Of a DNA stretch of 5,150 bases, positions 1 to 5,150 are shown in pieces. Each line of letters begins with the position of its first letter. Position 1 is the first letter of the stretch. This stretch comes from Deltaproteobacteria bacterium (GTDB lineage: Bacteria > Desulfobacterota > DSM-4660 > Desulfatiglandales > Desulfatiglandaceae): the NCBI GenBank assembly GCA_019307645.1, contig JAFDJF010000244.1, positions 1 through 5,150 on the forward strand, read 5' to 3'. Position numbers and translations under genes: made by a program. The notes under the pieces are model-generated. The model was given only the letters and a program-made list of their open reading frames with translations. It was not told the DNA's origin and did not search any database.

Positions 1-122
1 AAAACGATGAAGATATCCTCCCGAATCCTCAGAATATCATCCACCTCAAAAACCTTTGATATGTCTGACGTATTCCAGCATCAAATTCACAGGATGAATG
101 CCATTTAATCGGACAGATCCAT
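1..122. other. left-edge stretch without a supported gene
   Basis: I see no gene here that I can name. On the plus strand, frame 1 is open from the edge for 35 codons to a TAA at 106-108, but its composition does not look protein-like. On the minus strand, the frame open from about position 80 to the left edge reads like real protein near the edge (VDDILRIREDIFIV). It has no ATG; a GTG at 42-44 is possible. It could be the start or remnant of a gene lying mostly outside the window, downstream of the IHF/HU remnant. It is too short to identify. Confidence 0.3.
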
Positions 123-323
123 TCAATCTCGCCCATTCAAACTATCCTTCAACTGCTCGGAACACTGAAATGATACCACCTTCGTGGCTTCCAAATATAG
201 ATCTTCCCCTGAGGCAGGATTTCTGCCTTTACGTCCGAGCTTGTCTTTTACGCAGAACTTGTCGAACCGGAGATGAGGACATCCTCTTCTGATTCAACAG
301 ATTTCTTCATAAATTTCAAATAG
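123..323 (-). pseudogene. frameshifted IHF/HU-family DNA-binding protein remnant
   Basis: Three consecutive minus-strand frames together give most of an integration host factor/HU subunit. Positions 323 to about 303 read LFEIYEE. Positions 301-266 continue as SVESEEDVLISG. Positions 266-123 give a 47-residue uninterrupted C-terminus starting FDKFCVKDKLGRKGRNP, then ASGEDLYLEATKVVSFQC, and ending at a TGA at 123-125. The GFxxF...GRNPxTGE signature of the DNA-wrapping beta-arm is clear (here GRNPASGED). The order and spacing match the family once one extra base near 300-303 and one missing T near 266-268 are corrected. Further upstream, a minus-strand reading at 331-426 with TLT..KAYL and an AAAGGA before it may be the decayed N-terminus; that span would fit the usual length of about 95-100 residues. 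Family members bend or wrap DNA in the nucleoid. The variant resembles IHF-alpha proteins annotated in Desulfobacterota. Two frameshifts argue for a pseudogene, though sequencing errors in an intact gene cannot be excluded. It points away from the cluster at 505. Confidence 0.82.
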
Positions 324-504
324 TATGTTAAGAACAAATTTTATCGCAACCTCTCACAGCTTCTCTGATACTGGCTCTTTCCAAGTAGTTCTCAAGTAAT
401 AAATAAGCCTTGTTTTCTGTCAGCGTTCCTTTAAGATTGATCCGAAATGAACACTATTTTTGTCATCTCGATTTAAGTACATTGAATGAGGAGGTCTTTA
501 AATA
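324..504. other. AT-rich upstream region of the operon
   Basis: The stretch lies between the recognisable part of the IHF/HU remnant and the first intact gene. It is AT-rich, and its left half may hold the decayed N-terminus of that remnant on the minus strand (about 331-426). A transcript for the downstream genes should start here, but I found no -35/-10 pair with good matches at 16-18 bases. TTGATC at 437-442 and TTGTCA at 460-465 have no matching -10 box. The only firm signal is the ribosome binding site GAGGAGGT at 488-495, nine bases before the ATG at 505. Confidence 0.5.
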
Positions 505-1260
505 ATGGCGTATGATACGATATTGTATGAAAATGAGGACGGCGCCGGCATTATTACCATGAACCGTCCAGAACGTCGGAATGCATTGAGCCCTGCACTT
601 GTAAGAGAAATGACGGATGTATTGGAAAAAATCAGGGATGATGAGACAATCAAGGCGGTCATAATCAGCGGCGGAGAAAAGTTCTTTTGCTCCGGTATGG
701 ATTTAAAGGAGCCATCTGAAAATCTGCTCGATGAAATAAGAAAATTTTATAAACTGATCGAAAACGCTGACATGCCGGTAATTGCTGCCATAAATGGCCA
801 TTGTCTGGCTGGTGGTTTAGAAATGGCCATTTCCTGCGATCTCAGAATAGCGGCAGAGGATGCGACCTTTGGGCTACCGGAAATACAATTTGGCGCACTC
901 GCGATCGGGGGTGCAACACAAAGATTGCCACGGCTTATTGGCATGGGAAAGGCAAAGGAGTTGCATTTTATGGGAGAGCCGATCGATGCCCAAGAGGCAT
1001 ACAGAATTGGGCTGGTCAACAAAATTGTGCCTGCTGCATCGGTTATGGACGAAGCCAAAAAAATGGCAGGCACGCTTGCCCTGAGGTCGCGATCTGCCCT
1101 CAAAATGGCAAAATTCCTGATTAACACAGGGATGAGAACAGATCTCAACACCGGCATGGAGATTGAAACCGAGGTTTCCAAAGGGCTCTTCCATTCAGTT
1201 CCTGAAGAGATGAAAAAGGCGGCTGAGAGAGAAGGGGTCTATAAGAAGATATTTGAGTAG
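505..1260 (+). CDS. enoyl-CoA hydratase/isomerase family protein (crotonase fold)
   Basis: This 251-residue protein is close to the usual 255-260 of single-domain crotonases. Family members add water across the double bond of a 2-enoyl-CoA, giving a 3-hydroxyacyl-CoA in the cytoplasm; some are isomerases or C-C hydrolases. Features seen: an N-terminal strand with MNRPERRNALS (19-29), the oxyanion-hole segment FCSGMDL (61-67), the second oxyanion segment NGHCLAGGLE (97-106), and CDLRIAAEDATFGLPE (111-126). E106 and E126 are 20 residues apart, like Glu144 and Glu164 of rat mitochondrial hydratase, so both catalytic acids appear present and hydratase activity is the best guess. GGATQRLPRLIG (135-146) and the C-terminal helices for trimer formation follow. 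The ATG is preceded by a near-perfect ribosome binding site (488-495). It is the first gene of the cluster, and the next gene starts 104 bases on. Its exact substrate cannot be read from sequence. Context suggests it supplies a 3-hydroxyacyl-CoA to the thiolase-fold proteins downstream. Confidence 0.93.
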   Translation: MAYDTILYENEDGAGIITMNRPERRNALSPALVREMTDVLEKIRDDETIKAVIISGGEKFFCSGMDLKEPSENLLDEIRKFYKLIENADMPVIAAINGHCLAGGLEMAISCDLRIAAEDATFGLPEIQFGALAIGGATQRLPRLIGMGKAKELHFMGEPIDAQEAYRIGLVNKIVPAASVMDEAKKMAGTLALRSRSALKMAKFLINTGMRTDLNTGMEIETEVSKGLFHSVPEEMKKAAEREGVYKKIFE

Positions 1261-1364: not shown

Positions 1365-2507
1365 ATGAAAAAAAAGGTCGGTATAATTGGAATAAACCAA
1401 ACAAGGCATGAGTCGGCGAAGCGCGATACTGAACTTGCCGAAATGATCTTTGAAGTAACAAGCGGCGCCCTTGAAGATGCCCGGCTTACGATAAAGGATA
1501 TCGACAGCGTCGTATTGGCAGCGCATGATTTAATAGACGGCAGGAGTATCACCAGCATGCTGACGGCTCCCCCTGCCGGCTGCCACCTAAAAGATGAAAT
1601 CAGACTTGGTGACGATGGGGCATTTGCGGTTGCTCTGGCCTGGATGCGACTTCTGTCCGGTGAATTCAATACGTCTCTGGTCGTGAGCTGGAGCAAACTT
1701 TCAGAAGGTGATTTTGATGCCATCACCAGTCTTAACTTTGATCCGATGCTCTACCGGCCTTTGGGCTTTAATTATGTAACAGCCCATGCGCTTCAGGCCA
1801 TGAGGTTCATGTCTCGATCGGAAGTAACCGAGGCCCAGGCAGCAAAAGTCACGGTAAAAAATCGCTCAAATGCCCTGAATAACCCTCTGGCGCACTTGAA
1901 AGAAAGCGTTGGCCTTGATGATGTTCTAACATCAAAGTTATTGGCATGGCCTCTAAAAGAACTTGACTTGCCGCCTGCCACAGACGGCGCCTGTGCGATG
2001 GTACTGACAACGGAGGAGAATGTTCAGCGGAGTGACAATAATGTGGCTTGGATAAAGGGAGCCGGCTGGGCAAATGATACTTACTACTTAGGGGACAAAG
2101 AGTTGGGTGAGCTTTCATCGCTTGCCACAGCAGCACAGACGGCATACCGGATGGCCGGCATCGAGGATCCGCTGGAGCAACTTGACGTGGCAGAGGTCCA
2201 CGATCTGACATCGTTCCACGAGTTGATGGCATATGAAGCGCTTGGATTCTGCAGACAAGGAGAGGCCGGAATGCTGATTGACCAAGAAATGACTTCCATG
2301 GAAGGGACGCTGCCTGTTAACCCCTCAGGAGGCGCTTTGTCTTCACACCCGTATACAGCCGTTGGGTTAATCAGGGTGGCAGAGGCAGCCATGCAGGTTA
2401 CGGGCGGCGCAGAAGGGCATCAGGTGCCCGGGGTTGAAAACGCCCTGGCACACGGAGCAAGCGGCATGTGCGGACAGACCAATTGTGTGCTAATCCTAGG
2501 CAAATAG
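1365..2507 (+). CDS. thiolase-fold protein A, SCP2-thiolase-like, lacking the nucleophilic Cys
   Basis: This 380-residue protein has the two-domain thiolase fold throughout: VGIIGINQT at the N-terminus, ALEDARLTIKDIDSVV (35-50), SNALNNPLAH (168-177), DGACAMVL (207-214), EVHD (277-280), VNPSGGALSSHP (318-329) and a Gly-rich C-terminus. Thiolases cleave or form C-C bonds of 3-oxoacyl-CoA, using a cysteine in a C-A-S/T-G motif. The matching segment here reads RLGDDGAFAVALAWM (80-94) and has no cysteine; the nearest is C73. The two histidines of the family appear kept: H279 (EVHD) and H328 (SHP, where GHP is usual). Loss of the nucleophile suggests it is not a classical thiolase. The steroid-side-chain aldolase Ltp2 is a thiolase-fold enzyme repurposed for retro-aldol cleavage and active with a DUF35 partner, and two DUF35 genes lie downstream. 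An alternative is a non-catalytic or complementary subunit. It lies 13 bases before its paralog and shares motifs such as NALNNPxAH, LDDVL/IDDVL and SDGACA/TDGACA with it. Confidence 0.9.
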   Translation: MKKKVGIIGINQTRHESAKRDTELAEMIFEVTSGALEDARLTIKDIDSVVLAAHDLIDGRSITSMLTAPPAGCHLKDEIRLGDDGAFAVALAWMRLLSGEFNTSLVVSWSKLSEGDFDAITSLNFDPMLYRPLGFNYVTAHALQAMRFMSRSEVTEAQAAKVTVKNRSNALNNPLAHLKESVGLDDVLTSKLLAWPLKELDLPPATDGACAMVLTTEENVQRSDNNVAWIKGAGWANDTYYLGDKELGELSSLATAAQTAYRMAGIEDPLEQLDVAEVHDLTSFHELMAYEALGFCRQGEAGMLIDQEMTSMEGTLPVNPSGGALSSHPYTAVGLIRVAEAAMQVTGGAEGHQVPGVENALAHGASGMCGQTNCVLILGK

Positions 2508-2520
2508 AAAAGGAGGTGCC

Positions 2521-3702
2521 ATGGGTCGTAGAGTAGCAATTGTGGGCACAGGGCAAACACCCTATACGAAAAGACGGAAAGACGTTTCGATGCCCGAGTT
2601 GGTTCATGAAGCGGCAAAGAAAGCGCTTGAGGACGCGGAACTGACCATAGAAGATATCGATGCGGTGGTCTTCGGCACTGCGCCCGAGGCATTTGAGGGG
2701 GTCAATTGTCCTGATAAGTGGGCCGCCGATGGTGTGGGAGCCCTGAACAAGCCGTTTATGCGGATCAATACTGGCGGGGCAACCGGAGGGTCTGCGGCCC
2801 TTGCCGGAGTAACCCACGTTTCGAGCGGTCAGTTTGACAAAGTTCTGGTCGTGGCTTCCCAAAGGGTGGGGCAGACACCCAATGCGCAAAAAATATTGGG
2901 GCTTATCTGGGATCCTGTTTTTGCGACAGGCCTATCCCTAAACCTTATTACGACCGTTGCCATGGCAACCGCCGCCCTCATGGAAGGTTATGGCTTGAGT
3001 GAAAGGCATATGGCAAAGATCTCGGTCAAGGATCATCTTAATGCCCTGAACAATCCTTACGCTCATGTACGCAAACAAGTTGACATTGATGATGTACTTG
3101 ATTCCATGACCCTGATCTGGCCCATTAAACTATTTGACTGCTGCCCCAGCTCGGACGGGGCTTGTGCGGTTATCTTCGCTGCCGGGGAAGAAGCAACAAA
3201 GATCACCCCCACGCCTGCCTGGGTCATTGGAACCGGGGCAACGAGCCTTGTTTCCAGCCAGGGAGAAGTCTCCGCTGATACGGGCGGTATAGGGCAGCTC
3301 GCATTTGAACGGGCATACAAAATGGCAGGTATTGATAACCCGAAAAAGCAGATAGATGTGGTTGAAAGTTATTCCCCCTTTTCCACTGCAGAAATTAGTA
3401 ATTACGTGGAGATGGGCTTCGCAGAAACCATGACAGATGCAATAAAGCTGGTAGAAGAAGGCTTTGGAGAAATGACAGGGGAGGTTCCCTTTAACCCTTC
3501 CGGCGGCGTGCTTTGCGCTAATCCCATTGGCGCCACAGCCCTGGTCAGGGTGGCGGAAACCGCACTCCAGGTGATGGGAAAGGCAGAAAAGCGTCAGGTC
3601 CCGGATGTCAAAGTGGCCCTGGCCCAGGGACTGGGAGGATCGCCTGGTCCCGGATCAGCGACATTTACCAATTGCATGGTCTTATCAAAAAAACCGCTCT
3701 AG
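2521..3702 (+). CDS. thiolase-fold protein B, lacking the Cys and both His of the thiolase site
   Basis: This is a 393-residue thiolase-superfamily protein, the usual length for the family. It starts MGRRVAIVGTGQTPYTK with AGGAGGT (2511-2517) just upstream. Landmarks: ALEDAELTIEDIDAVVFG (36-52), RINTGGATGGSAAL (81-94), VKDHLNALNNPYAHV (169-183), PSSDGACAV (209-217), ESYSPFSTAE (282-291), FNPSGGVLCANPIGAT (324-339) and a Gly-rich GLGGSPGPG near the end. Aligned on these motifs, the nucleophile position of the C-A-T-G signature is G86 (GATG), the first histidine (VHD) is Y284, and the GHP histidine is N334 (ANP). All three classical residues are thus changed while the scaffold is well kept, so the protein is not simply decaying. 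It may be a partner subunit to protein A, or a retro-aldolase using tyrosines, as proposed for the Ltp2 aldolase. The next gene begins 10 bases on, with its ribosome binding site overlapping this stop. Substrate unknown. Confidence 0.9.
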   Translation: MGRRVAIVGTGQTPYTKRRKDVSMPELVHEAAKKALEDAELTIEDIDAVVFGTAPEAFEGVNCPDKWAADGVGALNKPFMRINTGGATGGSAALAGVTHVSSGQFDKVLVVASQRVGQTPNAQKILGLIWDPVFATGLSLNLITTVAMATAALMEGYGLSERHMAKISVKDHLNALNNPYAHVRKQVDIDDVLDSMTLIWPIKLFDCCPSSDGACAVIFAAGEEATKITPTPAWVIGTGATSLVSSQGEVSADTGGIGQLAFERAYKMAGIDNPKKQIDVVESYSPFSTAEISNYVEMGFAETMTDAIKLVEEGFGEMTGEVPFNPSGGVLCANPIGATALVRVAETALQVMGKAEKRQVPDVKVALAQGLGGSPGPGSATFTNCMVLSKKPL

Positions 3703-3705
3703 GAG
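3701..3705 (+). promoter_or_regulatory. ribosome binding site fixing the first DUF35 gene start
   Basis: AGGAG overlaps the stop codon of the preceding gene (TAG 3700-3702) and lies seven bases before the ATG at 3713. The frame is open back to 3605, but that part lies wholly within the thiolase-fold gene, so the long form is not used. An ATG at 3731 is a weaker alternative. The arrangement suggests translational coupling. Confidence 0.8.
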
Positions 3706-3712
3706 TCAAAAA

Positions 3713-4192
3713 ATGCAGGGGAAAAAAGAAATGCAGCAGGAGCTTCTGGAAATGCCGGGCAAGTGGGATCTTCCCTGGCTGTATGCTGCGGGCAAGGTCG
3801 GAAGCAAGTATATCACCGCATTAAGAGACGAGGCCCGCATACTGGCAACAAAATGTCCGGATTGCGGGCGTGTGCTTTTACCACCCAAAGCATATTGTGA
3901 ACGGTGTTTCGTATCGTGCAGGGACAACTGGGTAGAGCTGGAGCCGAAAGGAACTTTAGTATCTTATGCCATTATTACGCTTCCTTTTCCGGGAGAACGG
4001 GAACCGCCGTTCATTGTGGGGTATTTCAATATTAACGGCGCAACAACAAATATCCCTCAATTCCTGGAAGGAGTGGATTTATCTGACGTGGAAAAAGCCA
4101 GAAAGGAAATTCAAGTGGGGATGCCGGTTAAAGTGGTGTTCAACGAAAAGAGAGAAGGCAGACTAAGTGACTTTCATATGGAGCCAATTTAA
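3713..4192 (+). CDS. DUF35 zinc-ribbon/OB-fold protein A, thiolase partner subunit
   Basis: This 159-residue protein has the DUF35 architecture: an N-terminal helical segment with KWDLPWLY (17-24), a rubredoxin-like zinc ribbon with C48, C51, C62 and C65 (CPDC and CERC), then an OB-fold from about 73 with NWVELEPKGTLVSY, PPFIVGYFNI (98-107) and VGMPVKVVF (135-143). The family has no catalysis of its own known to me. Its members bind thiolase-fold partners and help hold the acyl-CoA, as BbsA does with thiolase BbsB, the ChsH2 DUF35 domain with aldolase Ltp2, and archaeal DUF35 proteins between thiolase and HMG-CoA synthase. All four cysteines are present, so a structural zinc is likely. The gene follows thiolase-fold protein B by 10 bases and precedes a paralog by 25, which supports a complex with one or both thiolase-fold proteins. 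Which pairs with which cannot be read from sequence. Confidence 0.92.
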   Translation: MQGKKEMQQELLEMPGKWDLPWLYAAGKVGSKYITALRDEARILATKCPDCGRVLLPPKAYCERCFVSCRDNWVELEPKGTLVSYAIITLPFPGEREPPFIVGYFNINGATTNIPQFLEGVDLSDVEKARKEIQVGMPVKVVFNEKREGRLSDFHMEPI

Positions 4193-4217
4193 ATGATGCG
4201 GCAGGGGGAAAAAGGAA

Positions 4218-4691
4218 ATGATAGAAGCGGTTGATACCATCGAAGTGCCTGCAAAATGGGAAGTCCCTTATAATTATGATATCGGGGAGACCGGAAGCAG
4301 GTTTTTTGTGGAGTTGCGGGACAATGCACGCCTTCTGGCAACGCGGTGCCCCGAGTGTGGTCGAGTGCTTTTTCCGCCGCGCTCTTTTTGTGAACGATGC
4401 TTTGTCTCTTTAAAGAAAAATTGGGTTGAACTCAAACCCGAGGGGACATTGGAGGCCTTCACCCTTGTCACCGAAGATTATTATTTTCCCGGCATGCCTG
4501 AAACGCCATACGTGATTTGCCTGGTCAAGTTCGGAGAAGCTTCCACGTCCATCCCGCAAATCCTTAGAGGGGTGGATCTTTCCGATCCGAGAAAAACAGT
4601 GCAAGAGTTAGCGGTGGGTATGCAAGTCAGGGCTGTTTTCAAAGACAGACGTGAGGGCCGAATAGAGGACTTCCACGTTGAGCCTGTCTGA
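4218..4691 (+). CDS. DUF35 zinc-ribbon/OB-fold protein B, paralog of the preceding gene
   Basis: This 157-residue protein has the same layout as its neighbour: KWEVPYNY (13-20), a zinc ribbon with C44, C47, C58 and C61 (CPEC and CERC), then an OB-fold with NWVELKPEGTLEAF (68-81), TPYVICLVKF (96-105) and VGMQVRAVF (133-141). It ends in EDFHVEPV where its neighbour ends in SDFHMEPI. By eye about half of the residues are identical, highest around the ribbon, so the pair comes from a tandem duplication followed by divergence. The loop after the first OB strands is longer here (TEDYYFPGMPE, 85-95) and differs from the neighbour's LPFPGEREP; in this family that region may face the partner or the acyl group. 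A purine-rich stretch GGGGGAAAAAGGA (4204-4216) serves as ribosome binding site. Likely role: the second DUF35 subunit for a thiolase-fold partner encoded upstream. Confidence 0.92.
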   Translation: MIEAVDTIEVPAKWEVPYNYDIGETGSRFFVELRDNARLLATRCPECGRVLFPPRSFCERCFVSLKKNWVELKPEGTLEAFTLVTEDYYFPGMPETPYVICLVKFGEASTSIPQILRGVDLSDPRKTVQELAVGMQVRAVFKDRREGRIEDFHVEPV

Positions 4692-4759: not shown

Positions 4760-5150
4760 ATGAAAGAAACGGCACTGGAAGGGCTCATGGTGCTCGATCT
4801 CACCAAGTTGGCTTCAGGTCCTTATTGCACAATGCTCCTGGGGGACATGGGTGCGGAAATAATCAAGGTAGAGGCGGGTGGGGGTCGGGCAGGAGAAGCA
4901 TTCCTGCCCGGCATCGCCGAAGACGAGGAAGATCAAAGCGTAGTGAATGCTGCGGCCCGAAATAAGAGAAGCCTGGTTCTCAATCTAAAAACAGAAGAAG
5001 CCCGGAAGATTTTCTATCAACTGGCCAAAGAAGCGGATGTCATTGTGGAAGAGTTCAGGCCGGGCGTTGTAAAACGCCTCGGGGTCGATTACGAAACCAT
5101 AAGAAAAATAAATCCAGGGATTATTTATTGTTCGATCACCGCTTTTGGCC
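4760..5150 (+). CDS. class III (CaiB/BaiF) CoA-transferase, N-terminal part, cut by window edge
   Basis: The first 130 codons of a family III acyl-CoA transferase are present; the reading frame stays open to the right edge, and full family members are about 380-430 residues. Motifs seen: VLDLTKLASGPYCTMLLGDM (11-30), GAEIIKVE (31-38), ARNKRSLVLNLK (66-77), ADVIVEEFRPG (92-102), LGVDY and INPGIIYCSITAFG (117-130). These enzymes move CoA from a donor such as succinyl-CoA to a carboxylic acid through an aspartyl-CoA intermediate; the catalytic Asp (near residue 169 in formyl-CoA transferase) lies beyond the window. A few members are instead racemases such as alpha-methylacyl-CoA racemase. Residues 44-65 carry an acidic insert-like stretch (EDEEDQ). 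The position at the end of the cluster fits activation of the pathway's acid substrate, as BbsEF does in anaerobic toluene degradation. Start chosen from GGAG at 4749-4752 and the conserved N-terminus. Confidence 0.9.
   Translation, partial: MKETALEGLMVLDLTKLASGPYCTMLLGDMGAEIIKVEAGGGRAGEAFLPGIAEDEEDQSVVNAAARNKRSLVLNLKTEEARKIFYQLAKEADVIVEEFRPGVVKRLGVDYETIRKINPGIIYCSITAFG

What the first reader, a model, noticed from the sequence alone, without database searches (positions are those of the whole stretch)
1365..4691. Two Cys-less thiolase-fold proteins beside two DUF35 proteins: candidate heteromeric retro-aldolase
Both thiolase-fold genes keep the scaffold but lack the nucleophilic cysteine of the C-A-S/T-G motif (RLGDDGAFAV in A, GATG in B). 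Two DUF35 zinc-ribbon genes follow directly. Established knowledge: the steroid side-chain aldolase Ltp2 is a thiolase-superfamily enzyme with a repurposed site that works with a DUF35 domain of ChsH2; BbsAB is a DUF35-dependent thiolase. Inference: this cluster encodes a DUF35-dependent C-C lyase acting on a 3-hydroxyacyl-CoA, or another non-thiolase reaction, possibly in an anaerobe and not on steroids.
Basis: partly seen in the sequence, partly recalled or inferred. Interest (0 to 1): 0.75.

Follow-up and report, generated by a model that had tools for sequence, protein, structure and literature searches.

The report
Paired Cys-less thiolase-fold aldolase operon
Two linked genes encode related proteins that look like fat-splitting thiolases but lack the reactive cysteine; with two small zinc proteins they most likely form a carbon-carbon cleaving aldolase, perhaps for branched molecules in oxygen-free microbes, and they are related to a gene pair known from sterol-degrading bacteria.

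Summary
A (1365-2507) and B (2521-3702) are thiolase-fold proteins without the nucleophilic cysteine, followed by two zinc-ribbon/OB DUF35 genes. The loss is family-wide: Gly at the position in 163 of 163 B rows; in A the turn that would carry it is three residues shorter. A and B are two old paralogous lines inherited together: side by side in all 40 loci examined (39 by script, one by eye), distances correlated (r 0.80, 0 of 2000 permutations as high). Both lines contain actinobacterial PRK07937/PRK08313 proteins, which by size and gene order are Ltp4/Ltp3, described as aldol lyases of C24-branched sterols. B keeps Tyr284 (158 of 163) where Ltp2 and Sal have their catalytic base. Hydratase genes lie in 18 of 40 loci, 0 of 20 control stretches. 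Best reading: an A-B-DUF35 retro-aldolase for 3-hydroxyacyl-CoA, B catalytic, in the wider Ltp3/Ltp4 family. Not shown: activity, complex, substrate, direction. The proton donor matches neither Ltp2 nor Sal, and one paper found ltp3 or ltp4 dispensable for a phytosterol conversion. New variant of a known kind.

The parts
505..1260 (+). enoyl-CoA hydratase/isomerase family protein (251 aa), possible source of the 3-hydroxyacyl-CoA
   Evidence: ECH_1 4.8e-64; same order ECH-A-B-DUF35-DUF35-CaiB in L088
1365..2507 (+). A: Cys-less thiolase-fold subunit (380 aa), Ltp4/PRK07937 side of the family; probably the non-catalytic partner (inference)
   Evidence: Thiolase_C_1; tree; model pLDDT 87.6; residue counts
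1605..1619 (+). A residues 81-85 (LGDDG), three-residue-shorter stretch where the nucleophile would sit
2521..3702 (+). B: Cys-less thiolase-fold subunit (393 aa), Ltp3/PRK08313 side of the family; proposed catalytic subunit (inference)
   Evidence: Thiolase_N and Thiolase_C_1; tree; model pLDDT 86.6
2776..2778 (+). Gly86 of B at the nucleophilic Cys position
   Evidence: Gly in 163 of 163 rows; alignment
3370..3372 (+). Tyr284 of B (Y-S-P-F) at the Ltp2 Tyr294 / Sal Tyr302 position; proposed base
   Evidence: Tyr in 158 of 163 rows; literature; Ltp2 numbering counted
3520..3522 (+). Asn334 of B at the thiolase GHP His / Ltp2 Tyr344 / Sal Gln352 position
   Evidence: Asn in 159 of 163 rows
3713..4192 (+). 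DUF35 protein 1 (zinc ribbon plus OB fold, 159 aa)
   Evidence: zf-ChsH2 and OB_ChsH2_C; C-x2-C-x10-C-x2-C at 3854-3907, read from the translation
4218..4691 (+). DUF35 protein 2 (157 aa), sister of DUF35 protein 1, 50% identical
   Evidence: (sister rows, 100/96 support); C-x2-C-x10-C-x2-C at 4347-4400; DUF35 chains of Ltp2 (6ok1_B) and Sal (9myr_B) are weak matches
4760..5150 (+). CoA-transferase family III (CaiB/BaiF), start only, runs off the window
   Evidence: CoA_transf_3 1.1e-43

Best explanation
A, B and the DUF35 proteins form one obligate heteromeric enzyme that cleaves a CoA-bound 3-hydroxyacyl (aldol) substrate into a ketone or aldehyde plus a shorter acyl-CoA, without thiolysis. 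A hydratase (here perhaps the ECH at 505-1260, in some relatives MaoC) makes the 3-hydroxyacyl-CoA. Tyr284 of B takes the proton from the 3-hydroxyl group; the backbone at Gly86 (where thiolases have their Cys) helps hold that oxygen, and Asn334 (where thiolases have His) helps hold the enolate. A completes the thiolase-fold dimer and shapes the pocket; the DUF35 proteins dock on the thiolase folds and bound the substrate cleft. Shown here: the gene set, family-wide loss of the Cys, conservation of Tyr284, co-inheritance of A and B, kinship with the PRK07937/PRK08313 pair. Inferred: the reaction, its direction, B as the active subunit, the complex, the roles of Gly86 and Asn334, the substrate (beta-branched acids favoured, whose tertiary alcohols cannot be oxidised for thiolysis).
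For: Gly at the nucleophile position of B in 163 of 163 rows and a shortened stretch in A. Sal has Gly there, an equivalent Gly is named for Ltp2, and both have a catalytic Tyr at the position of B Tyr284 (columns); Tyr in 158 of 163 B rows. Tsukamurella and S. clavuligerus pairs score over the PRK07937 and PRK08313 cut-offs (593 and 734, 550 and 713 bits) and fall in the A and B groups of the tree; ltp3/ltp4 are described as aldol-lyase genes for C24-branched sterols (passages). A-B pairs co-inherit: r 0.80 over 45 pairs, 0 of 2000 permutations as high, same nearest neighbour in 33 of 45; adjacent in 39 of 40 loci by script, the other (L053) by eye. A DUF35 gene lies within 400 bases of the pair in 36 of those 39; MaoC or ECH in 18 of 40 against 0 of 20 controls, with MaoC directly beside DUF35 in 8 and beside A in 1 of 9 loci and confirmed by Pfam in 3 of 3 tested.
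Confidence: 0.62

Rival explanations
1. Aldol enzyme running in the synthetic direction: condenses a ketone or aldehyde with an acyl-CoA to a 3-hydroxyacyl-CoA, which the ECH then dehydrates.
For: Aldol reactions and enoyl-CoA hydration are reversible (established). A DUF35 protein is detected only with acetone and isopropanol in a Desulfotomaculum ketone cluster (passages).
Against: Neighbours look catabolic (acyl-CoA dehydrogenase 23 of 40, AMP ligase 5 of 40); the ketone paper proposes a TDP/B12 route and I did not compare its proteins with A and B.
Confidence: 0.13
2. Cys-less decarboxylase or other enolate-forming enzyme on malonyl- or 3-oxoacyl-CoA, with no aldol step.
For: The relative TbSLP slowly decarboxylates malonyl-CoA; BKACE genes lie in 6 of 40 loci, so beta-keto acids may be near.
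Against: That activity is very slow and Sal does not show it; hydratase neighbours point to 3-hydroxyacyl-CoA.
Confidence: 0.09
3. Acyltransferase or thiolase-type Claisen enzyme in which a cysteine from elsewhere (A C369, or C82 in some A proteins) serves as nucleophile.
For: C369 of A is Cys in 128 of 161 rows and 8 of 161 A rows have Cys at position 82; the multi-component acyltransferases PhlABC and MucABC are among the structural matches.
Against: Position 82 is Ala, Glu, Gly, Thr or Ser in most rows; in B the most conserved Cys (C208, 160 of 163) aligns by eye with a Cys also present in Ltp2.
Confidence: 0.09
4. A and B are non-catalytic scaffolds or acyl-CoA carriers for the neighbouring hydratase or dehydrogenase.
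For: Both lack the thiolase nucleophile.
Against: Gly86 and Glu282 (163 of 163), Asn334 (159) and Tyr284 (158) of B are kept in rows from bacteria and archaea, more than a mere scaffold would need.
Confidence: 0.07

Closest known systems
Ltp4/Ltp3 with an OB-fold/DUF35 neighbour (actinobacterial PRK07937/PRK08313 pair; described as aldol lyases of C24-branched sterol side chains, Wilbrink 2012, seen only as cited)
   Same: Adjacent pair of paralogues with an OB-fold gene beside it; A groups with PRK07937, B with PRK08313 rows; no Cys, Asn at GHP His in 3 of the 4 actinobacterial rows and 119 of 119 A relatives, Y-x-P-F in both B
   Different: Window proteins are far below the NCBIfam cut-offs (A 177 of 419 bits, B 342 of 514); two small stand-alone DUF35 proteins instead of one 309-339 aa protein; ECH and CaiB neighbours; relatives named from Chloroflexota, Thermodesulfobacteriota and Asgard-type archaea
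Ltp2-ChsH2(DUF35) steroid aldolase (6ok1)
   Same: Thiolase fold, no Cys nucleophile, Tyr at the HDCF His position, DUF35 partner
   Different: One kind of thiolase-like chain (recalled); His296 and Tyr344 are Pro286 and Asn334 in B; separate clade for its relatives
Sal-Shy(DUF35) bile acid aldolase (9myr)
   Same: Gly for Cys, catalytic Tyr302 at B Tyr284, an amide (Gln352) at the GHP His position where B has Asn
   Different: Essential Cys304 is Pro286 in B; a central dimer of one thiolase-like chain flanked by DUF35 (abstract), not two chains
[quoted passage not shown]
   Same: Members of the same fold group with DUF35 partners (DUF35 chain of 6esq)
   Different: 6esq keeps Cys, HDCF and the GH motif (alignments); A and B do not. 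The Cys of BbsB is recalled, not checked

Membership tests
Ltp3/Ltp4-type aldol lyase pair (PRK08313/PRK07937 lines) | two adjacent thiolase-fold paralogues, one in each line | tested here: met
   A groups with the Tsukamurella and S. clavuligerus PRK07937 rows, B with their PRK08313 rows; the full A and B sets each need 2 changes because the two haloarchaeal pairs are loosely placed (82/86)
Ltp3/Ltp4-type aldol lyase pair (PRK08313/PRK07937 lines) | score over the NCBIfam cut-offs | tested here: not met
   A 177.4 of 419 (PRK07937) and 277.7 of 514 (PRK08313); B 342.5 of 514: wider family, not the subfamily
Ltp3/Ltp4-type aldol lyase pair (PRK08313/PRK07937 lines) | sequence comparison with named Ltp3 and Ltp4 proteins | not tested
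   no named Ltp3/Ltp4 sequence was obtained; link by NCBIfam family, size and gene order only
Ltp3/Ltp4-type aldol lyase pair (PRK08313/PRK07937 lines) | aldol cleavage of 3-hydroxyacyl-CoA | not testable with these tools
   needs enzyme assay
Ltp2/Sal aldolases | Gly instead of nucleophilic Cys and Tyr at HDCF His position | tested here: met
   B Gly86 163 of 163, Tyr284 158 of 163
Ltp2/Sal aldolases | known proton donor (Tyr344 of Ltp2 or Cys304 of Sal) | tested here: not met
   B Asn334 and Pro286
Ltp2/Sal aldolases | DUF35 partner | tested here: inconclusive
   two DUF35 genes directly downstream; binding itself not testable here
DUF35-dependent thiolases (BbsAB, archaeal AACT) | nucleophilic Cys in C-A-S/T-G | tested here: not met
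Thiolase superfamily fold | thiolase fold over the whole chain | tested here: met

The most novel reading that the evidence does not exclude
A large, ancient family of obligate two-chain thiolase-fold aldolases, of which the sterol enzymes Ltp3/Ltp4 are only one aerobic branch, serves anaerobic bacteria and archaea to cut beta-branched (tertiary-alcohol) acyl-CoAs, using a third catalytic layout (Gly, Tyr in a Y-x-P-F motif, Asn) distinct from Ltp2 and Sal, with the A chain as an essential pseudoenzyme and DUF35 partners duplicated more than once on their own.
Probability: 0.42. Interest if true: 0.72.

Novelty: new variant of a known kind. Interest (0 to 1): 0.57.

Why it matters
Where a source names these proteins it mostly says acetyl-CoA C-acetyltransferase or thiolase; on this reading they cannot do classical thiolysis. 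If it is right, many genomes (49 of 294 in one Chloroflexota class with profile hits at 1e-80, A and B proteins counted together) hold aldol-type steps for branched or polycyclic acids that pathway predictions miss, and Ltp3/Ltp4, known to me only from genetics, could be studied through their relatives.

Tried and rejected
Rejected: recent decay of a thiolase (family-wide conservation); C73 of A as nucleophile (Cys in 36 of 161); membership in the BbsAB models (NCBIfam BbsA/BbsB hits far below cut-off); one common duplication for all DUF35 pairs: most Chloroflexota pairs fall in two old lines, whereas the window's two are each other's sisters. CaiB is not enriched near A-B (5 of 40 against 4 of 20 controls), so nothing is built on it.

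Led nowhere: the single genome-contig scan gave one thiolase-like locus, L001; a phylum-wide sample with the single A sequence at 1e-60 gave 3 of 201 genomes; a plasmid search with the short Rhodococcus A-like protein found only itself; literature searches for anaerobic DUF35 aldolases and for Ltp3-Ltp4 biochemistry listed no paper that I could recognise from titles and abstracts as describing this family outside sterol degraders; this covers only the open-licence library and, where more than shown, only the listed part.

Dropped rows and limits: alignments left out homologues under 365 aa, that those under 340; searches list the best 120 of 2262, 3814 and 8000 hits. One search left out A44 (I gave a wrong start, out of frame), the 304-aa Rhodococcus A, and X_L066 and X_L068 (a longest frame that was not the matched protein). 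One search used 38 pairs from 36 of 40 loci plus 7 others, some of them near copies. The 40 case loci come from 29 genomes of one class and several are cut by contig ends; the 20 control stretches come from only two of these genomes; neighbour labels are phmmer hits to seed proteins, of which three MaoC, two BKACE and one each of five other kinds were checked by Pfam.

Full report
What is there. The window holds, on one strand, an enoyl-CoA hydratase family gene (505-1260), thiolase-fold genes A (1365-2507) and B (2521-3702), two DUF35 genes (3713-4192 and 4218-4691) and the start of a family III CoA-transferase (4760 to the end). Gaps from A to the second DUF35 gene are 10 to 25 bases, each gene with a purine-rich stretch in front, so these four read as one operon. 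No genome is held for the window; the nearest named protein is a 99% identical B from a Deltaproteobacteria MAG.

The missing cysteine. In the archaeal and SCP2-type thiolases shown the motif is C-A-S-G or C-S-T-G. B has G-A-T-G, with Gly86 at the Cys place in 163 of 163 rows. A is three residues shorter here; phmmer leaves the Cys-bearing tripeptide of 6esq unmatched, and the models show helix 85-101 in B against 85-98 in A. Which A residue stands there depends on the alignment: Gly85 (Gly 153, Ser 5, Ala 3 of 161) or Gly82 (Cys in 8 of 161). Neither reading gives A a conserved nucleophile. The GHP histidine is Asn in 159 of 163 B rows; in A it is Asn in 108 and His in 33 of 161, the window's own A being one of those with His.

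What B keeps. Ltp2 uses Tyr294 (YDHF) as base and Tyr344 as acid; Sal uses Tyr302 and Cys304 (YDCY) and has Gly at the nucleophile position (PMC12329534; abstract, sections 8 and 9 and part 1 of 2 of the discussion read). A Simplicispira Ltp2-like protein aligned to 6ok1 fixes the columns: counted on that alignment, Tyr294 starts YDHF, and Tyr344 stands, by eye, where thiolases have the GHP His. B has Tyr284-Ser-Pro-Phe there: Tyr in 158 of 163, Pro in 138 and Ala in 25 at the third place, Asn334 at the Tyr344 place. So B shares the base and the Gly with the aldolases and lacks both known acids. A at the Tyr place is His 75, Tyr 50, Ser 21 of 161, variable for a catalytic base, though it is His in 118 of 119 close relatives of the Tsukamurella A protein. 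I therefore propose B as the active chain; this is inference, and A also keeps conserved polar residues (Asp84 150, Glu286 159, Gln371 153, Cys369 128 of 161) that I cannot explain.

Two lines, one unit. In a tree of 77 rows all A and B rows separate from eight outgroup rows (thiolases and Ltp2-like proteins; 100/98), 31 of 33 A rows form one group (99/99) and 34 of 36 B rows another (97/98); the two haloarchaeal pairs sit together and loosely near B (82/86, 80/78). The actinobacterial trio of an OB-fold protein (309-339 aa), a 354-359 aa and a 388-390 aa thiolase-fold protein (Tsukamurella, S. clavuligerus) matches PRK07937 and PRK08313 over cut-off and falls inside the A and B groups. Its order and sizes are those I recall for Rv3521, Rv3522 (ltp4) and Rv3523 (ltp3); the gene names for the Rv numbers are in PMC6429209 (passages). 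ltp3 and ltp4 have neighbouring locus tags and equal induction by phytosterol (96.89 and 96.38 fold; PMC6593523 passages) and are described as aldol lyases for C24-branched sterols (passages); the 2012 study itself was seen only as a citation. Against this, in M. neoaurum WIII the ltp3 and ltp4 deletions still turned phytosterols into 4-HBC (PMC10398937 section 5). Distances within A and within B correlate at 0.80 over 45 pairs (highest of 2000 permutations 0.33) and 33 of 45 have the same nearest neighbour. Much of this is shared descent of an operon; it shows that the pair is inherited as a unit, not that the chains touch.

Neighbourhoods. With profile A2, 49 of 294 genomes of one Chloroflexota class (phylum known from L001's title, class unnamed) had matches at 1e-80, A and B proteins together and at most six candidates scored per genome; a phylum-wide sample with A alone at 1e-60 gave 3 of 201. 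I fetched 40 loci from 29 of these genomes and 20 control stretches from two of them. B lay beside A on the same strand in 39 of 40 by script; in the fortieth, L053, the stop-to-stop frames overlap by 11 bases more than the script allowed and the genes are adjacent. A DUF35 gene was in the stretch in 38 of 40 and within 400 bases of the pair in 36 of the 39; acyl-CoA dehydrogenase in 23 (controls 2 of 20), ECH 14 (0), MaoC 9 (0), either hydratase 18 (0), family I CoA-transferase 8 (0), BKACE 6 (0), AMP ligase 5 (1), 3-hydroxyacyl-CoA dehydrogenase 5 (0), CaiB 5 (4). MaoC lies 1 to 30 bases from a DUF35 gene in 8 and beside A in 1 of 9 loci, which recalls the hydratase-aldolase pairing of Shy-Sal and of ChsH1-ChsH2-Ltp2. 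One locus, L088, repeats the window's order ECH-A-B-DUF35-DUF35-CaiB at 33, 42, 42, 35, 35 (both window DUF35 proteins to the same L088 gene) and 41% identity. A-B-DUF35 units also occur on plasmids of Cupriavidus (two DUF35), Simplicispira (beside an Ltp2-like gene with an OB-fold gene of its own) and Natrinema, and with the DUF35 gene in front in Haloterrigena.

DUF35 genes. Both in the window keep four cysteines; 68 of 70 DUF35 rows do, the exceptions being the Simplicispira and Tsukamurella proteins. In most two-gene Chloroflexota clusters the first and second DUF35 genes fall in two old lines, four clusters (L073, L074, L076, L080) lie elsewhere on long branches, and the window's two are sisters at 50% identity, so a second DUF35 seems to have been gained more than once. 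That would fit one DUF35 for each of two different thiolase-like chains; this is conjecture.

Verdict. The substrate is unknown; beta-branched acids are favoured because aldol cleavage serves when a tertiary alcohol blocks thiolysis (as at C17 for Ltp2; inferred here). It is not categorically new, but I recognised no paper describing this wide family with its own catalytic layout in the listings of my searches.

Noticed in passing
L003:8680-9870: Ltp2-like protein (401 bits to PRK07855, under its cut-off of 469; YDHF motif) with an OB-fold gene behind it, directly after an A-B-DUF35 unit on a Simplicispira plasmid: two aldolase-like modules side by side.
   Followed up: partly
L001:4579-5721: Thiolase-like protein of an Anaerolineae MAG with Thr at the nucleophile column (T-T-A-S-G) but HDAF and GHP kept: another Cys-less layout.
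   Followed up: no
L049:1488-2429, L056:3684-4604: Beta-keto acid cleavage enzyme (BKACE) genes next to MaoC and the A-B unit; BKACE in 6 of 40 loci, a possible hint to the pathway.
   Followed up: partly
PDB 4yzo (ST0096, Sulfolobus), alignment: Solved archaeal thiolase-like protein with Ser where the aligned thiolase has Cys (D-N-T-S-G-S-G), yet a GHP motif.
   Followed up: no
L006:5090-6004: Rhodococcus plasmid A-like protein is only 304 aa and lacks the middle of A, while its B and DUF35 are full length; two acyl-CoA dehydrogenase and two MaoC genes precede it.
   Followed up: partly
A residues Asp84, Glu286, Cys369, Gln371 (window 1614-2477): Strongly conserved residues in the A chain (150, 159, 128 and 153 of 161 rows) whose role is not explained by calling A a non-catalytic partner.
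   Followed up: no
window 1-500: No convincing gene upstream of the ECH; the 64-aa ORF at 98-292 was not tested.
   Followed up: no
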